Source: Ensifer adhaerens
Lineage (GTDB): Bacteria; Pseudomonadota; Alphaproteobacteria; Rhizobiales; Rhizobiaceae
Length of the DNA: 64,000 nt
NCBI RefSeq assembly: GCF_028993555.1
Contig: NZ_CP118611.1
Span: forward strand, 986,001 to 1,050,000
Direction of reading: 5' to 3'
The notes under the pieces are model-generated. The model searched no databases and was not told the origin of the DNA. It saw only the letters and a list, made by a program, of their open reading frames with translations. The translations under genes were made by a program, and so were the position numbers. Each line of letters begins with the position of its first letter. Within the stretch, counting starts at the first letter, position 1. Shown here piece after piece: positions 29,855 to 47,612 of the stretch.

Positions 29855-29968
29855 CACTACAATATCCGGCCTTGATAATTGTATGGATATTGCATGTTTG
29901 TTCGTTTCGAGCAAGGCTGATGGCTGATCAATGGTCCGAGACGGACGCCTATCAGAGGTTCGACACAG

Positions 29969-30589
29969 TTAGGGTCTGGTGATGCTAGTCGTTGCCAGGA
30001 TAAGGCCGAAGCCCACCAGCAAGGTGCCGCAGACGCGATCGATCCAGTGCCGCAAGCGAAGAAGGCGAAGACGCACGACATCGGACGAGAAGAACAAGGC
30101 AACCAAGGCAAACCAGACGATGTGTGCGGCTGCGATGAAGCCACCATAGCCGACTTGCAAAAGGAGCGGTGTCGTCGGCTCGACGACCTGCATGAAGAGG
30201 CTGACAATAAAGACCGTCGTCTTCGGATTGAGCGCATTGGTGAAAAAACCAGTGCGCAGAGCACCGAGATCGGAAAGTGTCGGGATTTCGAGCTTTTCTA
30301 GGGGGTCGCCTGGCTTGGTGCGCAACATCTTGAAACCGAGCCAGATCAGGTAGGCGGCCCCGCCAAACTTCAGGATGCTGAAGAGAAGGATCGATTGCCG
30401 GATGACAAGCCCGACACCCAGGATGGTATAGGCAACGTGAACGCAGACACCGGCGCCGATACCGAGCGCTGTCAAGACGCCGGCCCGTCGGGACAGTAAA
30501 AGACTGTTGCGCGTAACCATCGCGAAATCGGGGCCGGGGCTGATGACAGCCAGGATCGTAATGGTGACTACCGCTAACAGTTCCGTCAT
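29969..30589 (-). CDS. LysE/RhtB family amino-acid exporter
   Basis: A 206-residue protein with about six hydrophobic segments and the family opening LLAVVTITILAVISPGPDFAMVTRNSL, which has the conserved SPGP motif. Such proteins export amino acids or derivatives such as threonine, homoserine lactone and cysteine. The start at 30589 faces the LysR gene at 30656, 66 bp away, the classic exporter/LysR divergent pair. The exact substrate cannot be read from the sequence. Confidence 0.9.
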   Translation of the reverse strand: MTELLAVVTITILAVISPGPDFAMVTRNSLLLSRRAGVLTALGIGAGVCVHVAYTILGVGLVIRQSILLFSILKFGGAAYLIWLGFKMLRTKPGDPLEKLEIPTLSDLGALRTGFFTNALNPKTTVFIVSLFMQVVEPTTPLLLQVGYGGFIAAAHIVWFALVALFFSSDVVRLRLLRLRHWIDRVCGTLLVGFGLILATTSITRP

Positions 30590-33243: not shown

Positions 33244-33459
33244 TCCTCCTCACATCTCAAAGTGGTCAATCTAGGAGAGCAACGCGTCCGCGCCTAGCCA
33301 TGGACCGAAACATGCGTGCTTACCCACGGATTCTTCTCACCTTTTGCCAAACCAGTGTGCACGGGTCGCCGCTATGACGTTGCTCCGGATCGCCATGGAC
33401 AGATGCGCCAGGCGTCGGCTATGTCTTGCGACCGATCCTAGGCAACGATCGAGGTGCCC

Positions 33460-33903
33460 ATGTCCATCCACGCTTTGACAACCCATGTCGGCGTCGCTCA
33501 TCCATGGATGTGCGACACGATGGGACACATGAACGTGCGCCACTACGCTGCAATGTTCGACGATGCGAGCTTCCAGCTTCTCGGCCATATCGCCGGCGTG
33601 GAGACGGAATCGGGCAGGGGGTGGGCGGACGTGCGCTCCGAGGTCGAATACAAACACGAAACCAAGGCTGGCGCCCTGATCACCATCCGTTCGCGCGTCA
33701 TCAAGCTCGGCCGTTCGTCGGTCACCTTCGAGCAGGTCATGTCGGGCACGCTCGACGGTGTCGTCCATGCCGTCAACAGGACCACGACCGTGCGCTTCGA
33801 TCTCGAAGCGCGCGCTGCCATCGCACTGGAGCCGGAGGCGCGGATGCGGGCCGAAGCGCTGTTGCCGGATGACGTGGCAAGGCCTCGCGATCAGTCGGTG
33901 TAG
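33460..33903 (+). CDS. 4HBT-type acyl-CoA thioesterase
   Basis: 147 residues from MSIHALTTHVGVAHPWMCDTM at 33460, with GAGG 5 bp upstream (a GTG start at 33454 is possible). The hot-dog fold is recognisable: DTMGHMNVRHYAAMFDDA carries the family's catalytic Asp/His/Asn region, followed by EVEYKHETKAGALITIRSRV. Such enzymes release free acids from acyl-CoA; related ones serve beta-keto acid cleavage products (betainyl-CoA thioesterase in carnitine degradation). A BKACE enzyme lies 7 kb away in the same locus. The last 13 bp overlap the convergent LysR gene. Confidence 0.85.
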   Translation: MSIHALTTHVGVAHPWMCDTMGHMNVRHYAAMFDDASFQLLGHIAGVETESGRGWADVRSEVEYKHETKAGALITIRSRVIKLGRSSVTFEQVMSGTLDGVVHAVNRTTTVRFDLEARAAIALEPEARMRAEALLPDDVARPRDQSV

Positions 33904-34850
33904 ACGCGCTCTTCTACCGGCGTTTCTGCAATTAGCGCCTGCAAGCCAGCGATCAGCGCCTTCTCGGCGCGGTTGATCGCCTTCTCCGGGTTCGTCAGCA
34001 TGAAGATGTCGATGGCGGGCGGATTGTCATAGGGCGGCAAGCGCCAGAGAAGTCCGTCGGCGACATCTCGGCGTGCGACATGCAATGGCAGCGAGCCAAC
34101 GCCGAGACCAGCAAGCGTCATTCGCCGTACTTCCTCGAGACTGGACGACACGCCGACGACATTGGCATTGAGCTTGGCTTCGCTGCGAAGCAGCGCCACA
34201 GGCCGCAGCGCATCGGCGATGTGGTCGGTGTGGAAGGAAACCGACGTCTCGCCCTTGAGGTCGGCAAGCTTCAACCCTTCGCGACCAAACAGCCGGTGGT
34301 GCGGGCCGCAGAAGAAGCCGAAAAACTCACGGAAGACCATCAGATAATCGAGCGCCGGATCCCGGACGCTGACAAGGCAAAGACCGAAGGAGGCGCGCTT
34401 CTCCCGCACCTGGCGCGTGACCTCACCGCTCGGCCCGACGTTGATCGTCAACGTCGCACGCGGGTAGCTGCGGTGGAATTCCATCAGCGCGCGGTCGAAG
34501 AGCGGCGAGACCACGTGGCTTGCAACCGCGATCGTGACGTGGCCAGTGACGTCGTCACTGACACCGCGCACGAGTTGAGGCAGTTGCGAAATTGTGCCGA
34601 AGACTTCGACGCTCTGCTCATAGAGCAGTTGTCCCACCTCGGTGAGATCGAATCGCGTCGCGTCGCGTTCGACCAGACGACGACCGACACGGTCCTCAAG
34701 CCGGCGGAGCGCATTGCTGACGCTCGGCTGCTTGAGGTTCAGCCGCTCGGCAGCGCGCGTGATGCTTTTCACCTCGGCGATCACCACGAAGGTGCGCAGC
34801 AGGTTCCAGTCAAGCTCCCAGACGAGCCGTTCCAATCGCGGTGAAGCCAT
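33891..34850 (-). CDS. LysR-family regulator
   Basis: 319 residues. The HTH domain is LDWNLLRTFVVIAEVKSITRAAERLNLKQPSVSNALRRLEDRVG; an effector-binding domain follows from about 100. It is divergent from the polar amino-acid importer operon (start 34991) across 140 bp, so it is probably that operon's regulator. Its stop overlaps the 3' end of the thioesterase gene, which it may also control. Confidence 0.9.
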   Translation of the reverse strand: MASPRLERLVWELDWNLLRTFVVIAEVKSITRAAERLNLKQPSVSNALRRLEDRVGRRLVERDATRFDLTEVGQLLYEQSVEVFGTISQLPQLVRGVSDDVTGHVTIAVASHVVSPLFDRALMEFHRSYPRATLTINVGPSGEVTRQVREKRASFGLCLVSVRDPALDYLMVFREFFGFFCGPHHRLFGREGLKLADLKGETSVSFHTDHIADALRPVALLRSEAKLNANVVGVSSSLEEVRRMTLAGLGVGSLPLHVARRDVADGLLWRLPPYDNPPAIDIFMLTNPEKAINRAEKALIAGLQALIAETPVEERVYTD

Positions 34851-34990
34851 TCCTGAAATCTATGCCCTCTATTTCCATTATCTATTTGCGCAATGCTAAC
34901 GCAGAAGCAATCATGAAATTCGGAAGGCGCCGTTTGCCAAGTCCCAAGCGCACAAGAAGGCGCCCCGTCCAGAGGAACAAGGAACATTTG

Positions 34991-35773
34991 ATGAAGACCC
35001 TATTCTCCGGCCTTCTGGTCGCGACGCTCACCATTGCTGCGACCTTTTCCGCCGTTTCGGCCCGGGCTGACGACCTCGAGAACGTCAAGTCCGCCGGCGA
35101 GCTGAAGATTGCCATGTCGGGCCAGTACCCGCCGTTCAATTTCGTCAACGAAGAAAACCAGGTCGTTGGTTTCGACGCCTCGATCGGCCAGGCGATCGCC
35201 GAGCGCGTCGGCGTCAAGGGTACCTTGGTGACGACCGCCTGGGACGGCATCATCGCCGGCCTGCTTGCCAACAAGTACGACACGATCGTCGGTTCGATGA
35301 CGATCACGCCTGAGCGCGAGAAGGTGGTCGATTTCGTCGGTCCCTACTACCACGCGGGCCGTGCGGTCTTCGTCAGCGAAGAGTCGACCGTTCAAAAGCT
35401 CGACGAGCTCAAGGGAAAGACACTCGGCGTCACGCTTGGCGAGACCCACGAGAAATGGGCGCGTGAACAGGGCGGCTGGGATGTCCGCACCTACAAGGGC
35501 CTGCCGGAGCTGCTGATGGAACTGAAGAGCGGCCGTGTCGATGCGATCGTCGTCGACAACATCCCGGTCATGGTTGCCGTCAAGGAAACCGGTGAAAAAG
35601 TCCGCCGTCTCGAAACGCCCGACATCGAAGGCGGCAGCGTCGCGATCGGCATTGCAATCCGCAAGAACAATCCGGAATTGAAGGCGGCCATGCAGAAGGC
35701 GCTCGAGGATATGCTGGCAGACGGCTCCTACGAGAAGATCGCCATGCAATGGGTCGGTAGCGACATCCGCTGA
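34991..35773 (+). CDS. Polar amino-acid ABC transporter substrate-binding protein
   Basis: 260 residues of the SBP_bac_3 family. The signal peptide is MKTLFSGLLVATLTIAATFSAVSARA; the frame runs further upstream but this start has a consistent leader and a GGAACA stretch upstream. Family motifs: SGQYPPFNFVNEENQVVGFDASIGQAIAER and ITPEREKVVDFVGPYY. It binds amino acids or related amines in the periplasm. It opens an operon reaching to about 43541 that includes transport and catabolic genes, so its ligand is probably the substrate of those enzymes. Confidence 0.9.
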   Translation: MKTLFSGLLVATLTIAATFSAVSARADDLENVKSAGELKIAMSGQYPPFNFVNEENQVVGFDASIGQAIAERVGVKGTLVTTAWDGIIAGLLANKYDTIVGSMTITPEREKVVDFVGPYYHAGRAVFVSEESTVQKLDELKGKTLGVTLGETHEKWAREQGGWDVRTYKGLPELLMELKSGRVDAIVVDNIPVMVAVKETGEKVRRLETPDIEGGSVAIGIAIRKNNPELKAAMQKALEDMLADGSYEKIAMQWVGSDIR

Positions 35774-35791
35774 CACCACACTCTCCATCTC

Positions 35792-35819
35792 TCCGGCCGA
35801 CGCGTGAGCCGCGGCCGGA
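35792..35819. other. Stem-loop after substrate-binding gene
   Basis: TCCGGCCG and CGGCCGGA form an 8-bp stem with a 12-nt loop, 18 bp after the stop of the binding-protein gene and 29 bp before the first permease. No T-run follows. It is likely a 3'-end stabiliser. Confidence 0.55.
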
Positions 35820-35848
35820 AGTCATGAATTGCCTTCCGGAGTTTCTCA

Positions 35849-36496
35849 ATGGACGTTTCGCTGGTGCAGCGCGTCTTCCCGTTTTTCGTGGAAGCGGCGT
35901 GGATCACGATCGAGATCTCGGTACTCGCCCTTGCGCTCGGTCTCGTCGTGGCCTTCCTGATCGCCTCTGCGAAGATGTCGCGCTCGTTCCTGCTGCGCGC
36001 CCTCGGCACTGCCTATGTCAGCCTGTTTCGCGGCACACCCTGCCTGATCCAGCTCTTCGTGCTCTATTTCGGTGGCCCGCAGATCGGCATCAATCTTGAT
36101 CCCTTCGCGGCCGGCGTCATCGGCCTCGGTTTGAACATCGGCGCCTACATGGCCGAGTCCATTCGAGGCGCCATCCTGTCGGTCGACCGCGGCCAGACTG
36201 AAGCCGCCCGCTCCATCGGCTTCAGCCGGCTCCAGACCATGCGCAAGGTGGTACTGCCGCAAGCAGCCCGCCTGATGATCCGGCCGCTCGGCGTCAATGC
36301 CGTGGCGCTCGTCAAGGGATCGGCGCTGGTCTCGACGATCTCGGTGGTCGAACTCACCTACACCGCCCAGCGCTATATCGGTTCGACCTACAAACCGTTC
36401 GAGATCTTCGGCGTCGCCGCCGTCCTCTACATGCTCATCGTCTATGTCGTCGCCCGGATCGTCGATCTGCTTGACCGACGTTACGCCATAGCCTGA
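35849..36496 (+). CDS. Polar amino-acid ABC permease (HisQ/GlnP type)
   Basis: 215 residues with five hydrophobic segments. The coupling loop GQTEAARSIGFSRLQTMRKVVLPQAARL is at about residues 112-139, the EAA motif of the HEQRO family. SLFRGTPCLIQLFVLYF is also a signature of this family. It partners the next permease, 13 bp downstream. Confidence 0.92.
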   Translation: MDVSLVQRVFPFFVEAAWITIEISVLALALGLVVAFLIASAKMSRSFLLRALGTAYVSLFRGTPCLIQLFVLYFGGPQIGINLDPFAAGVIGLGLNIGAYMAESIRGAILSVDRGQTEAARSIGFSRLQTMRKVVLPQAARLMIRPLGVNAVALVKGSALVSTISVVELTYTAQRYIGSTYKPFEIFGVAAVLYMLIVYVVARIVDLLDRRYAIA

Positions 36497-36509
36497 GGGG
36501 GAACGCCAC

Positions 36510-37169
36510 ATGCAAGGTCTCGATTTCAGCGTCGTTCCGCCCTATGCCGACATCCTCTGGATGGGCGTCTGGTGGACGGTCGTCCTGACGATCTCCGCAG
36601 CCGCGATCAGCTTCGTCTTCGGCATCGTCTTCGCCCTTGTCGTGCTCTATGCCCCGAAATCCGTCGCCCTTCCGGTGCGCGGTTTCATGTGGCTGTTCAT
36701 GGGCACGCCGCTACTTCTGCAGCTGTTCCTGATCTACTACGGCCTGGGTCAGCTTGGCTTCAAGATCCCGGCGCTGATCGCCGGCATCATCGGCCTCGGC
36801 CTGCACTTTGCCGTCTACAACGCCGACATCCTTCGCGCCGGGATCGTCGCCGTCGACGCCGGCCAGACGGAGGGTGCCCGCAGCCTCGGCTTCGGCCGGA
36901 TGCAGACCCTGCGCTACTTCATCGTGCCGCAGGCGATCCGCAACACCATACCTGCCATGGGCAACAACCTGATCGTGCTTCTGAAGGAATCGTCGCTGGT
37001 CTCGATCATCGGCATTGCCGAACTGGTGCACGCCGCCCAGCTTGCGATCAGCGAGACCTTCCGGCCGTTCGAGTTCTACATCACGGTCGCCGCTCTCTAT
37101 TACATCCTCAATCTCGTCCTCGAAGCGGGTCTGCGCCAGGTCGAAAAGAACGTGGAGGTCTCCCGATGA
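36510..37169 (+). CDS. Polar amino-acid ABC permease (HisM type)
   Basis: 219 residues with five hydrophobic segments and the coupling loop [46 protein letters not shown] is the second conserved block. The stop overlaps the ATPase start as ATGA. Two distinct permeases plus one ATPase are usual for this importer class. Confidence 0.92.
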
Positions 37170-37930
37170 CCGCTCTGAAACCCATGGTCGAAGTCAAGGG
37201 CGCCCGCAAGAATTATGGCGCGCTGGAAGTGCTGAAGGGCATCGACCTCTCCGTTGCCCGCGGGCAGATCGTCGCGATCATCGGCCCGAGCGGGTCGGGC
37301 AAGAGCACGCTGCTCAGGTCGATCAACCACTTGGAAACGCTGAACGGCGGCGAGGTCTGGCTCGACGGCATAAAGGTCAACCAGGACCTGAAGGGACAGG
37401 CGTTTGAACGGCACATCAATGCGGTGCGCCAGCAGATGGGTATGGTGTTCCAGCACTTCAATCTGTTTCCGCATCTGACTGTGCTTGAGAATATCACCAT
37501 GGGACCGATCATCCTTAAGGGCATGAACAAGGCTGCGGCCCGTGAACTCGCGATCGAACTTCTGTCGAAAGTGGGGCTGGCGGATAAGGTCGAAGCCTTT
37601 CCGTCACGGCTCTCCGGCGGCCAGAAGCAGCGCGTCGCGATCGCCCGCGCACTGGCGATGCAGCCGAAAGTGATGCTTTTCGATGAGGCAACCTCGGCAC
37701 TCGACCCGGAGCTGGTCGATGAGGTGAACGCTGTGATGAAGCAGCTCGCGGCCGAGCACATGACCATGCTGATCGTCACCCACGAAATGCGCTTTGCGGG
37801 CGAGGTCGCCGATCGCGTGCTGTTCATGGATGGCGGCGTGGTTGTCGAGCAGGGGGCGCCCAGCGAAATCTTCCGCCAGCCGACGCAGGAGCGCACCCGC
37901 GCCTTCCTCAAGAAGTACCTGGCAGCGTGA
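37166..37930 (+). CDS. Polar amino-acid ABC ATPase (HisP/GlnQ type)
   Basis: 254 residues from [20 protein letters not shown] at 37166; the frame is open upstream inside the permease gene, which is a shadow. Walker [10 protein letters not shown] near residue 39, signature [17 protein letters not shown] near 149, Walker [15 protein letters not shown] near 169, and the H-loop IVTHEMRFA near 202, all intact. Its stop overlaps the next gene's start, tying the enzyme genes to the importer. Confidence 0.94.
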
Positions 37931-39576
37931 TGGGTGCCTCGATGGAAAGAAGCAATCAGTACCCCGATTTCGGCCTGACGCCGGAACAGCGCCGTGAGGC
38001 GGTGCTCGGTCACTACTACGAATATCCCGGCATGGATGGTGAGCGCGGTGAGATCTGGTGCTACACCGACGCCTATGCCTATCCGCCCGGCGCCACCGTG
38101 CGGCTGCAGGTGAGTTCAACAGCGCCTCGCTTCTCGCTTGAAATCGTGCGTGATGGAGCAACGGAGGCGACGGTCTTCAAGCGCGATGGGCTTGCCGCGC
38201 GCTGGCAGGAAACGCCGGACCAGTGCTCTGTCATCGGCTGCGGTTGGGAAACGAGCTTCGAATTCAAGGTTGGCGACGACTGGCCCTCCGGAGCCTATCG
38301 CATCACATTGCGAGCCGAGGGCAGGGACGGCAAGCCGATCCATTGCCACCATCTCTTCATCGTGCGGCCACTTGCCGACCGAAAGCCGGGCCGCGTGCTG
38401 CAGGTCGCCGCCACCGGCTCCTGGACCTCCTACAATACCTGGGGCGGCTCCAACCACTACCAGGGGATCACCGGCCCCAACCGGGACCAGTATGCGACGA
38501 CGGTCAGTATCGAACGTCCGTTTTGCCGCGGCTTCGTCGTGTTGCCTGCGGATGCCCCGCGCGTGCCTTTGGAAATCTATGCGCCGATGGCTGTCGCGCC
38601 GCGCTATCCGCATATGGAATGGGCCTATGCCAATGGCTATTCCAAGAAGTACGCGTCGTCCGGCTGGGCGAGCTACGACAGCCACTTCTTCCGTTGGGCG
38701 GAACGGCAAGGCTATGCGGTCGATCTCATGAGCCAGCACGAGTTGCAGTTCAATCCGGAAATCCTCGACGGCTACGATTGCGTCGTCTTCGTCGGTCACG
38801 ACGAGTACTGGACCTGGGAAATGCGCGATGCGGTCGACAGCTATGTCGAGCGTGGCGGCCGGGCGGCGCGCTTTGCCGGCAACTTCATGTGGCAGACCCG
38901 CCTCGAAGACGGGGGCAAGCGCCAAGTTTGCTACAAGTACCGCTCAAGAGCCGAGGACCCGGCCTATCGTTCGGCGGACCCCACGCGCACCAGTGGTTCT
39001 TGGGAAGCAGCCGAGATCGGTCGCCCCGGGGCGGCAACGTTCGGGCTTAATGCCACGCGGGGGCTCTATGTCGGCTGGGGCGGTTGCGCCCCGCGCGGCG
39101 CCCGCGGCTTCCCGGTCTACCGACCCGAACATTGGGCCTTTGCCGGAACAGGCATCTACTACGGCGACATCCTCGGTTCCGAGGGACATGCCTTCGGCTA
39201 TGAGGTCGATGGGCTCGACTACATCATCCGGGGTGGATTGCCCGAGCCGACGGAAGACAGCGGCGCGCCGGAGGGCCTCGAAATCCTCGCGCTCGGCATG
39301 TCGTCGCTGAAGGAAGAAAGCGCCGACATTCCCGCCGACGACCAGTTTCTTTCGGACGCCGACGCAAAATTCGTCGCCGAGACCCTGATCGGTGACAGCG
39401 CCGCCAAGACCGTCGAGCGCGTCAAACGCGGCTGTGGCATGGTCGTCAATTTCCCGCGCGGCAAGGGCGAGGTGTTCCACGCTGGCAGTTGCGAATGGGT
39501 TGCGGCCCTGAAGCGCGGCGACGCGATGGTCGAGCGCGTCACCGCCAATGTTCTCAATCATTATCTCAATCGCTGA
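37930..39576 (+). CDS. N,N-dimethylformamidase beta-subunit-like amidase
   Basis: About 548 residues, read from the ATG at 37930, which overlaps the importer ATPase stop by one base (GTG at 37927 or ATG at 37942 are alternatives). It resembles the C-terminal large-subunit domain of N,N-dimethylformamidase: GSWTSYNTWGGSNHYQG, then DCVVFVGHDEYWTWEMRDAV and RAARFAGNFMWQTRL. The N-terminal part resembles a beta-sandwich (PPGATVRLQVSSTAPRF). DMFase hydrolyses amide bonds with a mononuclear iron site; here it may deacylate the imported compound. No small subunit gene is adjacent. Substrate unknown. Confidence 0.75.
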   Translation: MGASMERSNQYPDFGLTPEQRREAVLGHYYEYPGMDGERGEIWCYTDAYAYPPGATVRLQVSSTAPRFSLEIVRDGATEATVFKRDGLAARWQETPDQCSVIGCGWETSFEFKVGDDWPSGAYRITLRAEGRDGKPIHCHHLFIVRPLADRKPGRVLQVAATGSWTSYNTWGGSNHYQGITGPNRDQYATTVSIERPFCRGFVVLPADAPRVPLEIYAPMAVAPRYPHMEWAYANGYSKKYASSGWASYDSHFFRWAERQGYAVDLMSQHELQFNPEILDGYDCVVFVGHDEYWTWEMRDAVDSYVERGGRAARFAGNFMWQTRLEDGGKRQVCYKYRSRAEDPAYRSADPTRTSGSWEAAEIGRPGAATFGLNATRGLYVGWGGCAPRGARGFPVYRPEHWAFAGTGIYYGDILGSEGHAFGYEVDGLDYIIRGGLPEPTEDSGAPEGLEILALGMSSLKEESADIPADDQFLSDADAKFVAETLIGDSAAKTVERVKRGCGMVVNFPRGKGEVFHAGSCEWVAALKRGDAMVERVTANVLNHYLNR

Positions 39577-39588
39577 GAGAGATTTTCC

Positions 39589-40956
39589 ATGCTGAAGACG
39601 ACAAATTCCAACGAACGCCCAGCCTCGTATCTCTTCTACCAGTCGCGCCTGCGCCGGCCGCTGGTCGACCGGGCCGAAGGCATCTATCTATTTGACCAGG
39701 ACGGACGCCGTGTGATCGACGGCTCAAGCGGCGCCATGGTGGTCAATATCGGTCACGGGAACCGCAACGTGCTCGATGCGATGAAGCGCCAGATGGATCG
39801 CGTGACCTTCGCCTACCGGCTGCATTTCGAAAACGAGCCGGCGGAAGACCTGGCGCGCCGGGCCGCTGAAAAGCTGCCTGACGGCATGGACAGGATCTTC
39901 TTCGTTTCCGGCGGCTCGGAGGCGGTCGAATCCTGCCTGAAGCTCGCGCGGCAATGGGCTGTCGCCACCGGCCAGAAGGATCGCTGGAAGGTGATCTCGC
40001 GCTTTCCTTCCTATCACGGCGGGACGCTCGGCGCTTTGGCTGTCACCGGCTATGCCGCGCTCTCCGAGCCATTCTCGCCGATGATGCGCGAAATGCCGAA
40101 GGTGCCGGCGCCGACGGCCTATCTCGACCGGGACAACCTGACGATGGAACAGCGCGGTATCAAATATGCCGATATGCTGGAGGAGCGAATTCAGGCGGAA
40201 GGCCCGGAAAGCGTACTCGCCTTCATCATGGAGCCGATCGGCGGGGCATCCACCGGGGCGCTCGTGGCACCCGACAGCTACTATCCGCGCATTCGCGAGA
40301 TCTGCGACAAGTACGGCATCCTGCTCATCCATGACGAGGTGATGAGTGGTGCCGGACGCACCGGAAAGTTTCTTGGGGGCGATCACTGGAACTGCCGGCC
40401 GGATCTGATCGCGCTCTCCAAAGGCTTTGCCTCAGGCTATTGCCCGCTTGGCGCCATGGCCGCACCGTCGCGGATCGTCCAGCCGGTGCTCGATGCCGGC
40501 GGCTTCCAGCATGGTTTCACCTATGCTGGTAATCCGCTTGCCTGCGCTGCTGGTCTGGCAGTGCTTGACGAGATCGATCGTCTTGGCCTGATCGACAATG
40601 CAGCGGCCATGGGCGAGGTGCTGAAGGCCGAACTCGTAGCGCTTTCCAATCGCTTCCCCTTCATTGGCGACGTGCGCGGCAAGGGGCTGCTGCTGGCAGC
40701 CGAGTTCGTCTCCGATCGCGAGACCATGAAGCCCTTGCCGAAGGAATTGAATGCCCATCAGCGCATGGTCGACCTCGCCTATGAGCGTGGCCTGATCATC
40801 TATTCCCGGCGCACGCGCGGTGGCGTCGAGGGCGACCACTTCCTCGTCTGCCCGCCGATGATCATCACCCGCGAGCAGATCGGCGAGATCGTCGCCATCC
40901 TCGGCGACGCGCTCGAGGTGCTTGCCGAAGAACTGAACCTCCCCGTCAACCGCTGA
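39589..40956 (+). CDS. Class III (omega) PLP aminotransferase
   Basis: 455 residues with fold-type I features: GAMVVNIGHGNRNVLDAM, FFVSGGSEAVESCLKLAR near residues 104-121, SYHGGTLGAL, HDEVMSGAGRTGK near 248-260 with D249 to hold the PLP nitrogen, and the catalytic Lys K278 in LIALSKGFASGY. Class III enzymes act on omega- and beta-amino groups of diamines and beta-amino acids. Twelve bp after the amidase and 10 bp before the BKACE gene, it could produce the beta-keto acid which that enzyme cleaves. Confidence 0.9.
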   Translation: MLKTTNSNERPASYLFYQSRLRRPLVDRAEGIYLFDQDGRRVIDGSSGAMVVNIGHGNRNVLDAMKRQMDRVTFAYRLHFENEPAEDLARRAAEKLPDGMDRIFFVSGGSEAVESCLKLARQWAVATGQKDRWKVISRFPSYHGGTLGALAVTGYAALSEPFSPMMREMPKVPAPTAYLDRDNLTMEQRGIKYADMLEERIQAEGPESVLAFIMEPIGGASTGALVAPDSYYPRIREICDKYGILLIHDEVMSGAGRTGKFLGGDHWNCRPDLIALSKGFASGYCPLGAMAAPSRIVQPVLDAGGFQHGFTYAGNPLACAAGLAVLDEIDRLGLIDNAAAMGEVLKAELVALSNRFPFIGDVRGKGLLLAAEFVSDRETMKPLPKELNAHQRMVDLAYERGLIIYSRRTRGGVEGDHFLVCPPMIITREQIGEIVAILGDALEVLAEELNLPVNR

Positions 40957-40966
40957 GGGCGTGACC

Positions 40967-41911
40967 ATGACCAAAGCCAAAACATCGCGCAAAGTGATCA
41001 TCACCTGCGCGGTGACGGGATCGGTGCACACGCCGACCATGTCGCCCTATCTGCCGATCACCCCTGACCAGATCGCGTCTGAAGCAATCGCGGCAGCCGA
41101 GGCGGGTGCGTCCATCCTGCATTTGCATGCGCGAAACCCGGAGGACGGCCGTCCGTCCGCTGATCCGGCGCTGTTCATGCAGTTCCTGCCACGCATCAAG
41201 CAATCGACCGATGCCGTGATCAACATCTCCACCGGCGGTTCGTCGCTGATGGCGCTGGAGGACCGGCTTGCCGCTTCCCTGCGTGCCGAACCCGAGATGT
41301 GTTCGCTGAACATGGGCTCGATGAACTTCGCGCTGTTTCCGGCGCTCGACAAACCGCAAGAATGGAAGCACGAATGGGAGCCGCAGCTTCTTGAAGCAAC
41401 GCGCAGTTCGATCTTCAAGAACACCTTCGCCGATATGGAGTTCATCCTGACGCGGCTTGGCCAGGGCTGCGGCACCTGCTTCGAGTTCGAATGCTACGAC
41501 GTCGGCCATCTCTATTCGCTGGCGCACTTCCGCGATCGCGGCCTGGTGTCGGGTCACCTCTTCATCCAGTTCGTCTTCGGCATTCTCGGCGGTATTGGCG
41601 CGGACCCGGAGAACCTCACCCACATGAAGCGCATCGCCGACAAGCTTTTCGGCGACGACTACTCGTTCTCGGTGCTGGCCGCCGGCCGCCATCAAATGCC
41701 GATGATCACCATGGCCGCGGCCATGGGTGGAAACGTTCGCGTCGGGTTGGAAGACAGTCTCTACAACGGCCGCGGGACGCTGGCAGTAAGCAATGCCGAG
41801 CAGGTCCACCGGATCCGCACAGTTCTCGACGCCTTGTCACTGGAGGTTGCAACCCCTAAGGAGGTGCGCGCGCTTCTTGGCCTCAAGGGCGCAGATCAGG
41901 TGGCATTCTGA
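40967..41911 (+). CDS. Beta-keto acid cleavage enzyme (BKACE, DUF849)
   Basis: 314 residues from MTKAKTSRKVIITCAVTGSVH, with GAGGG 8 bp upstream of 40967 (a GTG at 40961 adds two residues). The TIM-barrel family's features are CAVTG near residues 14-18, the zinc-binding HLHARNPEDG at 52-61 (H52 and H54) and the Glu in VRVGLEDSLYNGRG. The family condenses a beta-keto acid with acetyl-CoA to give acetoacetate and a new acyl-CoA; 3-keto-5-aminohexanoate and dehydrocarnitine are known substrates. It directly follows the transaminase, suggesting a beta-amino acid as pathway substrate. Confidence 0.93.
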   Translation: MTKAKTSRKVIITCAVTGSVHTPTMSPYLPITPDQIASEAIAAAEAGASILHLHARNPEDGRPSADPALFMQFLPRIKQSTDAVINISTGGSSLMALEDRLAASLRAEPEMCSLNMGSMNFALFPALDKPQEWKHEWEPQLLEATRSSIFKNTFADMEFILTRLGQGCGTCFEFECYDVGHLYSLAHFRDRGLVSGHLFIQFVFGILGGIGADPENLTHMKRIADKLFGDDYSFSVLAAGRHQMPMITMAAAMGGNVRVGLEDSLYNGRGTLAVSNAEQVHRIRTVLDALSLEVATPKEVRALLGLKGADQVAF

Positions 41912-41974
41912 GGCCGGCGACAAGGGGCATGGTTCGACTTGAGCCTTTGCCTGCTGGCAGTGAAAGGGAAAACA

Positions 41975-42487
41975 GTGACGACGATGCAGCACTCAACGGC
42001 AGATGTCCGAATTCGCGCAGGCGAACCAGGGGATGCCGACACGATACATAGCGCGATCCTGGCTATGGGGCGTGGGCTCGAAATGGCGGACAAGGTCACC
42101 TGCACGGTCGATGACTACCGCCGCTTCGGCTTCGGTCCGAACGCCGCCTTCCACAGCCTGATCGCCGAGGCGGGTGCAGATCTTGCCGGTCTTTGCCTGT
42201 TCTTCCCGATTTTTTCGACCTGGCGCGGGCGCCCAGGCGTCTTCGTACAGGACCTCTTCGTTGAAGGTCGTTTCCGTGGCCTCGGTATCGGCGAAGCCCT
42301 CATGCGCGAAGTCGCCGCATGGTCGAGGGCAAGGGGCGGCGACTACCTTCGGCTGGAGGTCGACGTGGACAATCTGCCGGCGCAGCGCCTTTACGAACGG
42401 CTCGGCATTACCTGGCAGATGAAGGATCGCTCCCATGCCGCCTATGACGAGGCCTTCATGGCTCTCGCCGGCGGGCGGAAGATTTGA
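41975..42487 (+). CDS. GNAT-family N-acetyltransferase
   Basis: About 170 residues. The start is unsettled: GTG at 41975 has AAGGGAA at good spacing; ATG at 41984 is an alternative. DVRIRAGEPGDADTIHSAIL opens the fold; the acetyl-CoA binding loop is VEGRFRGLGIGEALMREVAAWSRARG, followed by DVDNLPAQRLYERLGI, the classic motif B. It resembles small-molecule (diamine) acetyltransferases. The next gene encodes a polyamine-type deacetylase, so the pair may cycle acetylation of one amine. Confidence 0.85.
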   Translation: MTTMQHSTADVRIRAGEPGDADTIHSAILAMGRGLEMADKVTCTVDDYRRFGFGPNAAFHSLIAEAGADLAGLCLFFPIFSTWRGRPGVFVQDLFVEGRFRGLGIGEALMREVAAWSRARGGDYLRLEVDVDNLPAQRLYERLGITWQMKDRSHAAYDEAFMALAGGRKI

Positions 42488-42509
42488 AGACGAAGGACCT
42501 GGAGAGAAC

Positions 42510-43541
42510 ATGAAAGCCTTCTATGCACTGGAACAGAAGCGACACAATCCGAAGGCTTTCCTTTCGAGCGGCGCACCGCAGCCCAACCCGGAGCAGCCGG
42601 AACGGGTCGAGCGCCTTCTGACTGGGGCGCGCGCTGCGGGCTGCGAGATCCTGCGCCCCCGTGAACACGGGCTCGGTTCGATCGCCGCGGTGCATACGCC
42701 CGAATATCTCGATTTCCTCGAACATATCTACGCGCGGTGGCAACGCATTCCCGAGGCTTCGGAGGAGGTGATCCCGAACATTCATCCGCTAGCGCGAGGT
42801 GGCCGCTACCCAGCCTCTGCCGTCGGGCAGGCGGGATACCACATGGCCGATACCGCGTGCCCGATATCCTCGGACACCTGGGAGAGCGTCCTCTGGAGCG
42901 CCTGGAGCGCAGTCGACGCTGCTGACGCCGTAATGGCCGGCGACCGGGCGGCCTATGCGCTCTGCCGGCCGCCGGGCCACCACGCCTTTGCCGATGTCGC
43001 CGGCGGCTTCTGCTTCGTCAACAACTCGGCCGTGGCCGCGCAACGTTTCCTCTCAAACGCTGCCCGCGTCGTGATCCTCGACATCGACCTGCACCATGGC
43101 AACGGCACCCAAGGCATCTTCTATCACCGTGCCGACGTGCTCACGATCTCGATCCACGCTGACCCCGTGCGCTTTTACCCGTTCTTCTGGGGGCATGCGG
43201 ATGAACGCGGCGAGGGCCCGGGCCTCGGCTACAATCTCAACCTGCCGCTCGAGCGCAAATCCGGCGACGCCGAATTCCTGGCGGCGCTCGACGTCGCCTT
43301 CCGCCGCATCCGTGCTTATGCTCCCGACGCGCTGGTCGTGGCGCTCGGTCTCGATGCCTTCGAAGGCGATCCCTTCGGCGGCCTGTCGGTCTCGACGCCA
43401 GGTTTTTCGCGCATTGGCGAAGCGATCGCGGGTCTCGGGCTTCCGACGGCGATCGTGCAGGAGGGCGGCTATCTCTGCGATGCGCTGTCCGACAATCTGA
43501 CGGCGTTCCTCACCGGATTTGGTGGCGCGGCCACACGCTGA
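42510..43541 (+). CDS. Acetylpolyamine-amidohydrolase-like (HDAC family) deacetylase
   Basis: 343 residues, start at 42510 after GGAGAGAAC. It has every active-site element of acetylpolyamine amidohydrolase at nearly the same spacing as the Mycoplana ramosa enzyme: CRPPGHHAF with H157/H158, DIDLHHGNGTQ with D193 and H195, ALGLDAFEGDP with D282 (zinc ligands), and EGGYL with Y321. The enzyme removes acetyl groups from acetylated polyamines or related amines. It ends the operon that begins with the amino-acid importer; 514 bp without a gene follow. Confidence 0.9.
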   Translation: MKAFYALEQKRHNPKAFLSSGAPQPNPEQPERVERLLTGARAAGCEILRPREHGLGSIAAVHTPEYLDFLEHIYARWQRIPEASEEVIPNIHPLARGGRYPASAVGQAGYHMADTACPISSDTWESVLWSAWSAVDAADAVMAGDRAAYALCRPPGHHAFADVAGGFCFVNNSAVAAQRFLSNAARVVILDIDLHHGNGTQGIFYHRADVLTISIHADPVRFYPFFWGHADERGEGPGLGYNLNLPLERKSGDAEFLAALDVAFRRIRAYAPDALVVALGLDAFEGDPFGGLSVSTPGFSRIGEAIAGLGLPTAIVQEGGYLCDALSDNLTAFLTGFGGAATR

Positions 43542-44055: not shown

Positions 44056-45618
44056 ATGAAACTGAGAAAGCATCTCCTCGCGGGGTTGGCATTTACCTTC
44101 CTTGCATCCTCCGCATCCGCGGAAACGCTGCGCTGGGGAAGCCCGCGGGATATCTTCTCGCTCGACCCCTATTCCTACGGCAGCACCTCGAACCTCGCCT
44201 TTCTCAACCACGTCTATGAAGGCCTGACCCGCTATACCCCGGAGTTCAAGGTCGAGCCGGCGCTCGCCACCAGCTGGGAGATGGTTTCCGACAAGGTCTG
44301 GCGCTTCCATCTGCGCAAGGGCGTGAAGTTCCAGAACGGCGCCGATTTCAACGCTGACGACGTCGTCGCCTCCATGGCCCGCGTCAGCCACCCGACGTCA
44401 CCGCTGCGTGGCAACATCCCGGCCTACGTCTCGACCACCAAGGTGGACGACTATACGGTCGACATCGAAGTCAACTCGCCGAACCCGTTGTTCCTCAACG
44501 ACATGACCAACATCTTCATGTTCGACAAGGATTGGCTGATCGACAATAAGTCGGAGCTGCCGACGGACGTTGGCGCCAAGGTCGAAGGCTACGCCACCTA
44601 CAACACCAACGGTACTGGCCCGTTCAAGGTTGAGTCCCGTGTTCCCGACAGCAAGACCGTTCTCGTCAAGAACGACGGCTGGTGGGATACGCCGAAGCAC
44701 AATCTCGACCGCATCGAATTCATGCCGATCACCTCGGCAGCAACCCGCGTTGCAGCCCTGCTTTCGGGCGAAATCGACCTCACCGATGGCGCCCCGGTAC
44801 AGGATCTGGAGCGCCTGAAGAGCGCGCCAGAGATCAAGGTCATCGAGCGCACCGACCTGCGCACCGTGCATATGGTCTTCAACCGCCATGAAACCTTCGC
44901 CGATGGCCGCGAGAACTTCTTCAACAACATCAAGGTGCGTCAGGCGATCGACCATGCGATCGACCGTCAGCTCATCTTCAAGCGGGTGATGCGCGGCAAG
45001 TCACATGTCGCAGGCACCATGGTCGCGCCTGAGATCCCCGGCTACAGCGCCGAGCTCGACGTGCCGACCGCCTACGATCCGGAACTCTCCAAGAAGCTGC
45101 TCGAAGAGGCCGGCGCCGTCGGCAAGGAGTTCACGCTCGTCTGCATGAACGACGAAAGCGTCAACGAAGAAGATGTCTGCAGTGCGCTGGTCTCGATGCT
45201 GTCGCGCGTCGGTCTCAAGCCGACCCTCGATATCGGCCCACGTGCTGTGCAGGCGCCCAAGCGCGCCGGCGGCAAGTCCGATGCCTACATGATCGGCTGG
45301 GCCAACGAGCCGACGCTCGATGCCTATTCGATCCTGATTCAGGTTCTTTCGACCCGCGAAGGTGCGGCCGGTGTCGCCAACTACGGCGGCTGGTCCTACC
45401 CGGAACTCGACGCCATGGTGAAGAAGGCTGCGGTCGAGATGGATCACGACAAGCGTCTGGCGATCGAAACCGAAGCGCTGAAGTTCGCCAAGGACGAGGT
45501 CATCATGATCCCGCTTCACCAGCAGCCGATGGCCTGGGCGATGTCCAAGAACGCGACGGATGTGACCATCCGTGCCGACAACAAGCCGCGCCACTGGCTG
45601 ACGCGTATCGGCGATTGA
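44056..45618 (+). CDS. Oligopeptide/nickel-type ABC substrate-binding protein
   Basis: 520 residues of the SBP_bac_5 family. Signal peptide MKLRKHLLAGLAFTFLASSASA, then ETLRWGSPRDIFSLDPYSYGS, VYEGLTRYTPEFKVEPALATSWE and RFHLRKGVKFQNGADFNADDV, all family blocks. The ligand is not readable, but two amidohydrolases encoded in the same operon suggest a cyclic amide, heterocycle or peptide-like compound. Probably controlled by the GntR protein at 54281. Confidence 0.92.
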   Translation: MKLRKHLLAGLAFTFLASSASAETLRWGSPRDIFSLDPYSYGSTSNLAFLNHVYEGLTRYTPEFKVEPALATSWEMVSDKVWRFHLRKGVKFQNGADFNADDVVASMARVSHPTSPLRGNIPAYVSTTKVDDYTVDIEVNSPNPLFLNDMTNIFMFDKDWLIDNKSELPTDVGAKVEGYATYNTNGTGPFKVESRVPDSKTVLVKNDGWWDTPKHNLDRIEFMPITSAATRVAALLSGEIDLTDGAPVQDLERLKSAPEIKVIERTDLRTVHMVFNRHETFADGRENFFNNIKVRQAIDHAIDRQLIFKRVMRGKSHVAGTMVAPEIPGYSAELDVPTAYDPELSKKLLEEAGAVGKEFTLVCMNDESVNEEDVCSALVSMLSRVGLKPTLDIGPRAVQAPKRAGGKSDAYMIGWANEPTLDAYSILIQVLSTREGAAGVANYGGWSYPELDAMVKKAAVEMDHDKRLAIETEALKFAKDEVIMIPLHQQPMAWAMSKNATDVTIRADNKPRHWLTRIGD

Positions 45619-45626
45619 GTTTCCTT

Positions 45627-45654
45627 GCCCCGGCGGAGCGTGCTCTGCCGGGGC
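45627..45654. other. Stem-loop after substrate-binding gene
   Basis: GCCCCGGC and GCCGGGGC flank an inner GAGC/GCTC pair, making a 28-nt nested hairpin starting 8 bp after the binding-protein stop and ending 22 bp before the permease. Without a T-run it probably protects the upstream message. Confidence 0.65.
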
Positions 45655-45676
45655 TCCTCATTCTGCGAGAAACCCA

Positions 45677-46648
45677 ATGATTGTCTTTCTCATCAAGCGG
45701 CTGGCCAACGCCGTGCTGGTCATGCTCGCCGTAGCGCTGCTCGCTTTCTTGATCTTCCGCTTCGCCGGCGATCCGGTCGAGCTGATGGCCAACGAACAGA
45801 TGTCGCAGGCCGACCGCATCGAGCTGCGCGAAAAGCTTGGGCTGAACGATTCCTTCCTGACCCAGTTCAGCCGCTTCGTCGTCAACGCCGCACAGGGCGA
45901 TTTCGGTATCAGCTACCGCAACGGCCAGGACGTGATGAAGCTCATTGCCGAGCGTTTCCCGGCGACTATGGAGCTGGCGCTGGTCGCAACCGTGCTGTCG
46001 CTCCTGATCGGTATACCGCTTGGCGTCATCACCGCGATCAACCGAGGGCGATGGTACTCGGAGGGCCTGCAGTTCGTCAGCATTATCGGCGTCTCCTTGC
46101 CGAGCTTCGTCGTCGGTATCCTTTTGATCCTGGTCTTTGCCGTCACCTTGGGCCTCGTGCCGGCCTTCGGTCGCGGCGATGTCGTCCAGCTCGGCTGGTG
46201 GAGCACCGGCCTGTTGACCGCTTCCGGTCGCGCGTCGCTGCTTCTGCCGTCGCTTGCGCTCGCCCTTTACCAGATCACCCTGGTGATGCGCCTTGTGCGC
46301 GCCGAGATGATGGAGGTGCTGCGCTCCGACTTCGTCAAGTTCGCACGCGCCCGCGGCGTGCCGCGCTGGCGGATCTACTTCCGGCACGCGCTCAGAAACT
46401 GTCTGATGCCTGTCGTCACCATGACGGCGATGAACTTCGGCTCGCTGATCGCCTTTGCGCTGATCACCGAAACCGTCTTCCAGTGGCCAGGCATGGGCAT
46501 GCTTTTCATCCAGGCGGTGACCTTCCTCGATATGCCTGTCATGGCGGGGTATCTCTGCATCGTCTCCTTCATCTTCGTCACGCTCAACACGCTCGTCGAC
46601 ATCGCCTATGCGGTCATCGACCCGCGGCTGCGCGACGCCACCCGCTGA
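45677..46648 (+). CDS. ABC transporter permease (DppB-like)
   Basis: 323 residues, start MIVFLIKRLANAVLVMLAVALL. About six hydrophobic segments; the coupling loop is RSDFVKFARARGVPRWRIYFRH near residues 215-236. The RFAGDPVELM stretch stands where DppB proteins have their N-terminal periplasmic loop. Ten bp before the next permease. Confidence 0.92.
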   Translation: MIVFLIKRLANAVLVMLAVALLAFLIFRFAGDPVELMANEQMSQADRIELREKLGLNDSFLTQFSRFVVNAAQGDFGISYRNGQDVMKLIAERFPATMELALVATVLSLLIGIPLGVITAINRGRWYSEGLQFVSIIGVSLPSFVVGILLILVFAVTLGLVPAFGRGDVVQLGWWSTGLLTASGRASLLLPSLALALYQITLVMRLVRAEMMEVLRSDFVKFARARGVPRWRIYFRHALRNCLMPVVTMTAMNFGSLIAFALITETVFQWPGMGMLFIQAVTFLDMPVMAGYLCIVSFIFVTLNTLVDIAYAVIDPRLRDATR

Positions 46649-46658
46649 GGTCGCTGCC

Positions 46659-47609
46659 ATGACAGATCACGTCCAGCAATCCACACCACCGCGCCAGCCC
46701 TCCAGGCTAACCCGCTGGCGCCAGAGCGACCTGTGGTGGTCCTTCACCCACAAGCCTTCGGCAATCATTGGGGCGGTCATCCTCACCTTTCTGATCGTGA
46801 CCGCCTTTGCCGCACCGCTGATCGCGCCGCAAAATCCCTTCGATCCGGCCCAGCTCGAGCTCTGGAATTCAGAGCTGCCGCCAATCTGGGAAGCCGATGG
46901 CCAATGGCCCTATGTGCTTGGCACCGACACCCAAGGGCGCGACATGCTCTCGGCCATTCTTTATGGCTCGCGTATCTCGATCCTGATCGGCGTCGCTTCG
47001 GTCGTGCTGTCGCTCGCCGTGGGCCTCAGCCTCGGCCTCGTCGCCGGCTATTTCGGCCGGTTCATCGACAACTTGCTGATGCGTATCGGTGATGTGCTTC
47101 TGTCGATCCCGACCATCCTGATCGCCATCCTCGTCAGCGCGGTCGCCCGCCAGATGTTGCCGCCCGAACTTCGGGATGTCGGCTCGGCTGCGGTTCTGGT
47201 ACTGGCGATCACACTCAGCGCCTGGGTGCAATATGCCCGCACCGTGCGTGCCCAAACGATCGTCGAACGTGGCAAGGAATATGTGCAGGCGGCGCGTCTT
47301 TTGAAGACGCCGGCGCGACGCATCATGCTGAAGCACATCCTGCCGAACACGCTGACGCCGATCATGGTCGCCGCCACGCTGAACTTCGGCATGGCAATCC
47401 TGACGGAGGCGACGCTCTCCTTCCTCGGCATCGGCATGCCGCCGAGCCAGCCGAGCCTTGGAACGCTGATCCGCCTCGGCAACCAGTTCCTGTTCTCGGG
47501 CATCTGGTGGGTCGTGCTCTTCCCCGTCGTCCAGCTTTGCCTTCTCGTGGTCTCCGTCAACCTGCTCGGTGACTGGCTGCGCGATGCGCTCAATCCGAAA
47601 TTGAGGTGA
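46659..47609 (+). CDS. ABC transporter permease (DppC-like)
   Basis: 316 residues from MTDHVQQSTPPRQ at 46659. The first membrane helix (SAIIGAVILTFLIVTAFAAPLIAPQ) is followed by YVLGTDTQGRDMLSAILYGSR, the conserved DppC block, and the coupling loop is GKEYVQAARLLKTPARRIMLKH. Followed almost immediately by the first amidohydrolase gene. Confidence 0.92.
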   Translation: MTDHVQQSTPPRQPSRLTRWRQSDLWWSFTHKPSAIIGAVILTFLIVTAFAAPLIAPQNPFDPAQLELWNSELPPIWEADGQWPYVLGTDTQGRDMLSAILYGSRISILIGVASVVLSLAVGLSLGLVAGYFGRFIDNLLMRIGDVLLSIPTILIAILVSAVARQMLPPELRDVGSAAVLVLAITLSAWVQYARTVRAQTIVERGKEYVQAARLLKTPARRIMLKHILPNTLTPIMVAATLNFGMAILTEATLSFLGIGMPPSQPSLGTLIRLGNQFLFSGIWWVVLFPVVQLCLLVVSVNLLGDWLRDALNPKLR

Positions 47610-47612
47610 ATG

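What the first reader, a model, noticed from the sequence alone, without database searches (positions are those of the whole stretch)
33460..43541. Candidate undescribed route for an N-acylated beta-amino acid or polyamine-like compound
Within one locus are a polar amino-acid importer, a dimethylformamidase-like amidase, a class III transaminase (K278 intact), a beta-keto acid cleavage enzyme (HLH zinc site intact), a GNAT acetyltransferase and an acetylpolyamine-amidohydrolase-like enzyme with all catalytic residues; a 4HBT thioesterase and a LysR gene flank them. Class III transaminases convert beta-amino acids to beta-keto acids, and BKACE cleaves beta-keto acids with acetyl-CoA to acetoacetate plus an acyl-CoA, which a thioesterase can hydrolyse. 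Read in order: import, deacylate, transaminate, cleave, release. A beta-lysine-like compound (giving a 4-aminobutyryl-CoA) would fit the polyamine-type deacetylase, but this is only one guess.
Basis: partly seen in the sequence, partly recalled or inferred. Interest (0 to 1): 0.75.

Follow-up and report, generated by a model that had tools for sequence, protein, structure and literature searches.

The report
Operon degrading an acylated beta-amino acid
A soil bacterium related to Ensifer carries a gene set, shared by many relatives, that probably imports a beta-amino acid with an acylated second amine (perhaps acetyl-beta-lysine) and breaks it down by a route I found no description of.

Summary
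The genes are real, intact and linked far above chance. In 199 family genomes, 31 of 50 deacetylase genes at least 57% identical to this one lie within 5 kb of a BKACE gene; 0 of 100 listed paralogs do. Transaminase, BKACE and deacetylase, often with the GNAT, recur with or without the amidase and behind two unrelated importers or none, so they are the core and the rest is optional.

Two replacements fit the chemistry. In Rhodobacterales the same importer and transaminase go with either BKACE plus HDAC-type deacetylase, or CoA-transferase, thiolase and ArgE/DapE deacylase. Two Rhizobiaceae genomes have a CoA ligase and beta-ketothiolase instead of BKACE. The BKACE passes a model for an uncharged beta-keto acid.

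Best reading: catabolism of a beta-amino acid with an acylated second amine: transaminate, cleave to acetoacetate plus acyl-CoA, hydrolyse, deacylate. Acetyl-beta-lysine is the leading guess and is unproven. Against: 27 of 80 loci keep all but BKACE (all nine genes are dispensable somewhere). My ten paper searches found no description.

The parts
33454..33903 (+). 4HBT-type acyl-CoA thioesterase, proposed to hydrolyse the acyl-CoA made by BKACE; optional partner
   Evidence: PF13279 58.8 bits, cut-off 25.5; present in 29 of 80 loci; beside the importer in Pararhizobium, beside LysR in Shinella
33891..34850 (-). LysR-type regulator, divergent from the importer
   Evidence: 32 of 80 loci
34991..35773 (+). 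family 3 solute-binding protein of an amino-acid-type ABC importer
   Evidence: PF00497 136 bits; best NCBIfam models are cystine and Lys/Arg/Orn types, all below cut-off
35849..36496 (+). ABC permease 1
   Evidence: PF00528
36510..37169 (+). ABC permease 2
   Evidence: PF00528
37166..37930 (+). ABC ATPase
   Evidence: PF00005
37942..39576 (+). dimethylformamidase-like protein, proposed optional amide-opening entry step
   Evidence: PF20254 230.7 bits; Y168, H290, E292, N318 (numbering) invariant in 46 relatives and aligned to DMFase Y399 (weakly), H519, E521, N547
39589..40956 (+). class III aminotransferase (AT3), proposed beta-amino acid transaminase
   Evidence: PF00202 317 bits; best NCBIfam NF005685 453.5, below cut-off 485; K278
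40961..41911 (+). BKACE, beta-keto acid cleavage enzyme
   Evidence: PF05853 357 bits; NF053538 517.6 over cut-off 430; H54, H56, and E177/Y179 in the FECY motif
41984..42487 (+). GNAT acetyltransferase, proposed N-acetyl protection of the second amine
   Evidence: PF00583 60.2 bits; no NCBIfam model over cut-off, best streptothricin acetyltransferase 41.6 against 420
42510..43541 (+). HDAC/APAH-family deacetylase, proposed N-deacylation
   Evidence: PF00850 253.6 bits; nearest solved chain 3men, 336 bits; all six catalytic positions checked are conserved

Best explanation
A catabolic operon for an imported beta-amino acid that carries a second, acylated amine. AT3 turns the beta-amino group into a ketone. 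BKACE with acetyl-CoA splits the beta-keto acid into acetoacetate and an acyl-CoA two carbons shorter. The 4HBT enzyme frees the acid, and the HDAC-type enzyme removes the acyl group, leaving an ordinary amino acid. The GNAT acetylates incoming molecules whose second amine is free, which would stop the amino-ketone from closing to a cyclic imine. The dimethylformamidase-like enzyme is an optional entry step that frees the amino acid from an amide. Best single candidate (about 0.2 to 0.25): beta-lysine or N6-acetyl-beta-lysine, via 6-acetamido-3-oxohexanoate, 4-acetamidobutyryl-CoA and 4-acetamidobutyrate to GABA. Shown: genes, key residues, linkage, replacements. Inferred: substrate, order of steps, roles of GNAT, thioesterase and amidase.
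For: Linkage of deacetylase and BKACE, 31 of 50 against 0 of 100 paralogs. AT3, BKACE and APAH together in 48 of 80 named loci, in 12 of 15 fetched loci that have BKACE beside APAH and no DMFA, and in 6 of 20 loci from outside the family. Replacement of BKACE and deacetylase by CoA-transferase A/B, thiolase and ArgE/DapE deacylase beside the same importer type and AT3. CoA ligase plus BktB-type thiolase beside BKACE-less clusters. BKACE subgroup model for an uncharged substrate; canonical FECY catalytic residues. BKACE, a 4HBT and a class III aminotransferase together without APAH in L177. Importer in the same run of genes.
Against: BKACE is missing from 30 of 80 loci, 27 of them with exactly DMFA-AT3-GNAT-APAH, and those 27 genomes hold only BKACE paralogs of at most 62% identity. 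GNAT is absent by tblastn from 6 of the 15 DMFA-less loci. L157 and L158 have BKACE, GNAT and APAH without AT3 nearby. 4HBT is adjacent in only 29 of 80. Most of the 24 more distant deacetylase rows also lack the two glutamates, so that feature does not set this subfamily apart. No enzyme was assayed and no result names the substrate.
Confidence: 0.5

Rival explanations
1. One reading: an N-acyl beta-amino acid or its amide is imported and deacylated first (APAH or the amidase), then transaminated, cleaved by BKACE and released; the GNAT is a side activity.
For: Same genes and linkage. Five of the 15 DMFA-less loci with AT3, BKACE and APAH lack a GNAT (L159, L162, L163, L164, L166), as does L236, so acetylation is not always needed.
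Against: The BKACE passes a model for an uncharged substrate, not the one for an amino substrate. It leaves the frequent GNAT (74 of 80) unexplained.
Confidence: 0.2
2. Two pathways packed side by side: AT3-GNAT-APAH (with DMFA) handles acylated diamines, BKACE serves something else.
For: 27 of 80 loci have exactly DMFA-AT3-GNAT-APAH; Rhizobium sp. CB3171 has AT3-GNAT-HDAC with only a BKACE fragment.
Against: BKACE stays with AT3 and APAH in lineages that lack DMFA, and where it is missing other beta-keto acid cleaving enzymes appear in L132 and L137 and in L233 and L238.
Confidence: 0.15
3. Run in reverse as a biosynthetic route: BKACE joins acetoacetate and an acyl-CoA, AT3 aminates, the GNAT acetylates, giving a beta-amino acid solute.
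For: A DUF849 enzyme works in biosynthesis of flavophos (PMC12871164, passages); acetyl-beta-lysine is a known osmolyte in other organisms (listing and abstract lines).
Against: Importer, regulator, thioesterase and deacetylase fit uptake and breakdown; the flavophos enzyme does not do BKACE chemistry and lacks the catalytic Tyr that is kept here.
Confidence: 0.07

Closest known systems
[quoted passage not shown]
   Same: A beta-keto acid derived from beta-lysine is cleaved by a BKACE-family enzyme with acetyl-CoA
   Different: Kce model not reached (230 against 382); no KamA-family gene within 100 kb of the cluster in 37 genomes; here an aminotransferase, GNAT and deacetylase stand in the operon
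Triacetate lyase and BKACE15 (NF053538-type BKACE)
   Same: Same model above cut-off; BKACE15 (8rip) aligns over the whole length, 378.8 bits; FECY motif kept
   Different: Those are tied to phloroglucinol (PMC10470551, passages) or presumed aromatic degradation (PMC11961710, passages), without AT3, GNAT and deacetylase as far as those passages say
Bacillus subtilis kamA/yod genes
   Same: YodT's closest solved structure is 3I4J (PMC6522883, passages), also the best hit of AT3. From memory only: the group includes a GNAT, a deacetylase, CoA-transferase subunits and the aminotransferase
   Different: CoA-transferase instead of BKACE, other deacetylase family, KamA present (gene order and content recalled); function undetermined for KamA and YodT. 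The L233/L238 operons resemble it more than the window does
Acetylpolyamine amidohydrolase (M. ramosa APAH)
   Same: Fold family and catalytic residues
   Different: E106 and E117 replaced; linked to BKACE rather than to polyamine genes
Paracoccus dimethylformamidase
   Same: DMFA2_C domain and four aligned key residues
   Different: Distant (38.4 bits), about 545 against 775 residues; two further key residues not placed; substrate unknown

Membership tests
BKACE | Pfam PF05853 above cut-off | tested here: met
   357.2 against 24.8 bits
BKACE | zinc HxH and catalytic Glu/Tyr | tested here: met
   H54, H56, E177, Y179; Glu and Tyr roles
BKACE | acetyl-CoA-dependent cleavage activity | not testable with these tools
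   needs an enzyme assay
NF053538 (3,5-dioxohexanoate:acetyl-CoA) BKACE subgroup | curated cut-off | tested here: met
   517.6 against 430; L177 and L163 BKACEs pass too, so the model is wider than one substrate
Lysine-fermentation Kce | curated cut-off NF052387 | tested here: not met
   230 against 382
Lysine-fermentation Kce | Glu14 that binds the substrate amino group | not tested
   no alignment with 2Y7D was printed; role of Glu14
M. ramosa-type acetylpolyamine amidohydrolase | HDAC-family catalytic residues | tested here: met
   (one row has a gap at Y323)
M. ramosa-type acetylpolyamine amidohydrolase | polyamine-binding Glu106 and Glu117 (role recalled) | tested here: not met
   V and A in the window protein; no Glu in 136 of 136 rows
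Dimethylformamidase | PF20254 domain | tested here: met
   230.7 against 27
Dimethylformamidase | Fe ligands Y399, Y440, E521 and H519, N547, E657 | tested here: inconclusive
   H519, E521, N547 aligned at 30 bits, Y399 only in a 6-bit stretch; Y440 and E657 not aligned
Class III aminotransferase | PF00202 and PLP lysine | tested here: met
Acetyl-beta-lysine catabolism | activity on, or growth with, (acetyl-)beta-lysine | not testable with these tools
   needs assays and mutants

The most novel reading that the evidence does not exclude
An undescribed pathway, spread through several alphaproteobacterial families, that protects a diamino beta-acid by N-acetylation, transaminates it, cleaves it with BKACE and then deprotects the product with an HDAC-family enzyme: the acetyl-on, acetyl-off logic of arginine biosynthesis used in beta-amino acid breakdown, giving an HDAC subfamily a role on short acylamino acids.
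Probability: 0.3. Interest if true: 0.7.

Novelty: new variant of a known kind. Interest (0 to 1): 0.5.

Why it matters
If right, it offers substrates for three vaguely annotated groups: a BKACE subgroup, an HDAC-family subgroup annotated as 'histone deacetylase family protein', and a class III aminotransferase clade. It would show how soil and plant-associated bacteria feed on acylated beta-amino acids. The exchange of BKACE plus HDAC for CoA-transferase, thiolase and ArgE/DapE deacylase also suggests a testable function for the unexplained kamA and yodT genes of Bacillus subtilis.

Tried and rejected
Rejected readings. (a) Acyl-homoserine-lactone degradation (amidase frees a 3-oxo acid for BKACE): the BKACE core persists without the amidase and AT3, GNAT and APAH stay unexplained. 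(b) Ectoine-type catabolism: in L141 a DMFA homolog lies near an ectoine-hydrolase-like M24 protein (572.8 bits, below its cut-off of 613), but tblastn found no AT3, BKACE, GNAT or APAH there. (c) Kynurenine route: L123 has a 58% DMFA homolog with a tryptophan 2,3-dioxygenase, a benzoate-CoA-ligase-family protein and a class III aminotransferase; distant DMFA relatives may be formamidases, but these partners are not in the window cluster. (d) The dipeptide-type ABC importer and two amidohydrolases at 44056-50287 are a separate unit, next door in 3 of 80 loci (L035, L036, L039).

Dead ends. The AlphaFold model of the DMFA-like protein has mean pLDDT 53.9 and was not used. Gaps left by BKACE in Mesorhizobium show no clear remnant. 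My ORF picker sometimes chose wrong-strand ORFs, so absence of a gene is taken from tblastn tables only. In one search the column 'potA' came from a wrong-strand ORF and was ignored. Rows include overlapping genomes and are not independent. Gene labels used inside scripts (such as penta, NDT, amidohydB, matB, OCD, hemLlikeAT) are my own.

Full report
What is there. The window is part of a 7.77 Mb genome in four contigs whose nearest named relatives are Ensifer. Between 33454 and 43541 are a 4HBT thioesterase, a divergent LysR gene and nine genes in one direction: family 3 binding protein, two permeases, ABC ATPase, DMFA2_C protein, class III aminotransferase (AT3), BKACE, GNAT and an HDAC/APAH-type deacetylase. 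Key residues are present. A gap of 514 bp separates the deacetylase from the next gene, a dipeptide-type binding protein that starts another unit.

Is the grouping real? AT3 is present in 76, APAH in 76, GNAT in 74, BKACE in 50, importer genes in 31, LysR in 32 and 4HBT in 29; 26 have all eleven genes, 48 have AT3, BKACE and APAH together, 27 have exactly DMFA-AT3-GNAT-APAH, and 3 have DMFA alone, one of them on a 3.8 kb contig. An independent test used the deacetylase and BKACE in 199 genomes of the family (counted): 31 of 50 deacetylases at 57% identity or more lie within 5 kb of a BKACE (21 of 31 genera), against 0 of 100 listed more distant ones. Both lists have limits: BKACE matches only to E 1e-90, and the deacetylase list was cut by the tool. 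From the BKACE side, 21 of 22 at 72% or more, 6 of 28 at 66-72%, 4 of 67 at 60-66% and 0 of 30 at 50-60% lie beside such a deacetylase.

What is core and what is optional. Of 29 family genomes with DMFA at 65% or more, 16 have a BKACE at 72% or more, each within about 3.3 kb of it, and 13 do not. The reverse also occurs. Fifteen fetched loci have BKACE beside APAH and no DMFA (L153-L166, L176); AT3 is there in 12 and GNAT in 9. L153-L155 have the amino-acid-type importer. Of the others I checked one binding protein (L162, SBP_bac_8) and one ATPase (L176, polyamine model TIGR01187, 361.6 against 355.6). Outside the family, 6 of 20 loci fetched by deacetylase similarity carry AT3, BKACE and APAH. 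Named examples are Shinella sp. HZN7, Phyllobacterium zundukense, Parasedimentitalea marina and a record called Roseateles sp. XES5. In Pararhizobium qamdonense the window's locus exists as two units on one plasmid, about 36 kb apart: thioesterase-LysR-importer, and LysR-DMFA-AT3-BKACE-GNAT-HDAC.

Replacements as evidence for chemistry. Parasedimentitalea marina has importer, LysR, AT3 (63%), BKACE, HDAC-type protein, M20 hydrolase and alanine racemase. Alisedimentitalea scapharcae and Rhodobacteraceae bacterium M382 have the same importer type, AT3 (67%), hydrolase and racemase, but CoA-transferase A/B, an ArgE/DapE deacylase and an acetyl-CoA acyltransferase in place of BKACE and HDAC (families checked for the first). 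CoA-transferase plus thiolase does in two steps what BKACE does in one. L132 has a malonyl-CoA-synthase-type ligase, a BktB-type thiolase, a 4HBT and an enoyl-CoA hydratase beside BKACE-less DMFA-AT3-GNAT-APAH; L137 shows the same ORF clusters. L177 has BKACE, a 4HBT 60-62% identical to the window's, a HemL-like class III aminotransferase and an SBP_bac_8 protein, without APAH. These favour a beta-keto acid made by transamination and cleaved to an acyl-CoA, with removal of an acyl group as a further step.

Nature of the substrate. The BKACE passes NF053538 (517.6 against 430) and misses the Kce model (230 against 382). [quoted passage not shown] BKACE groups differ by charge of the substrate (PMC4922564, passages), and in Kce Glu14 binds the amino group (PMC10470551, passages). 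I infer an uncharged beta-keto acid, hence an acylated second amine at cleavage. A free amine three carbons from the ketone would close to a five-membered imine (textbook chemistry), which gives the GNAT a protecting role like that of acetylation in arginine biosynthesis (recalled). The deacetylase keeps the catalytic residues, but E106 and E117 of the M. ramosa enzyme are replaced in 136 of 136 related rows; most of 24 more distant rows lack them too. Acetyl-beta-lysine or beta-lysine would fit every step and end in GABA, but nothing here singles it out. A KamA-family gene is present in 16 of 37 cluster genomes; no match lies within 100 kb of the cluster on one contig, though several assemblies are drafts.

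The dimethylformamidase-like protein. Dimethylformamidase binds iron with Y399, Y440 and E521 and loses activity when H519, N547 or E657 is changed (PMC7686228, passages). H519, E521 and N547 have aligned counterparts, Y399 only in a very weak stretch; the four counterparts are invariant in 46 relatives, the lowest 74% identical. Y440 and E657 were not placed. A metal amidohydrolase is likely; its substrate is open.

Against. Thirty of 80 loci lack BKACE. The 27 genomes with DMFA-AT3-GNAT-APAH hold only paralogs of at most 62% and show no clear remnant in the gap; Rhizobium sp. CB3171 keeps a 133-residue N-terminal BKACE piece. L138 and L140 lack APAH and L127 lacks AT3. Class III aminotransferases are common: 21 matches at about 19 places in this genome, so AT3 alone is weak evidence.

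Literature. Ten answered searches of the held library showed no paper joining BKACE with an acetylpolyamine-type deacetylase or describing this operon. The library lacks most subscription journals, the original BKACE study among them as far as I saw, so absence from print is not established. From memory that study tested many beta-keto acids and may include an acetamido one. PMC6522883 (passages) gives the roles of B. subtilis YodT and KamA as open.

Noticed in passing
window 44056-50287: Separate unit: dipeptide-type ABC importer and two amidohydrolases (NF004636 528 bits and NF004801 754 bits, both over cut-off); next door in 3 of 80 loci.
   Followed up: partly
L123:7504-14283: A 58% DMFA homolog beside a class III aminotransferase, a benzoate-CoA-ligase-family protein and a tryptophan 2,3-dioxygenase: a hint that some DMFA relatives are N-formylkynurenine formamidases.
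   Followed up: partly
L177:4786-10529: BKACE, 4HBT, HemL-like class III aminotransferase and SBP_bac_8 importer together; by eye the aminotransferase recalls beta-phenylalanine aminotransferases.
   Followed up: partly
L169 and L170: A 72% identical deacetylase follows a CoA-ligase-like ORF and an ORF that by eye resembles ornithine cyclodeaminase; no family call was made.
   Followed up: no
L141:4024-11746: DMFA (72%) with an ectoine-hydrolase-like M24 protein, a family 3 binding protein and an M20 dipeptidase.
   Followed up: partly
L237:8354-8755: A 133-residue BKACE N-terminal piece between AT3 and GNAT in Rhizobium sp. CB3171: BKACE decay in place.
   Followed up: partly
L062:11746-12252: A 2-thiouracil desulfurase family gene (PF04463) sits between AT3 and GNAT; its ORF cluster has members in 9 of 80 loci.
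   Followed up: no
window 28457-30589: By eye a MocR-type regulator with an aminotransferase-like domain next to a LysE-type exporter; no family call was made.
   Followed up: no
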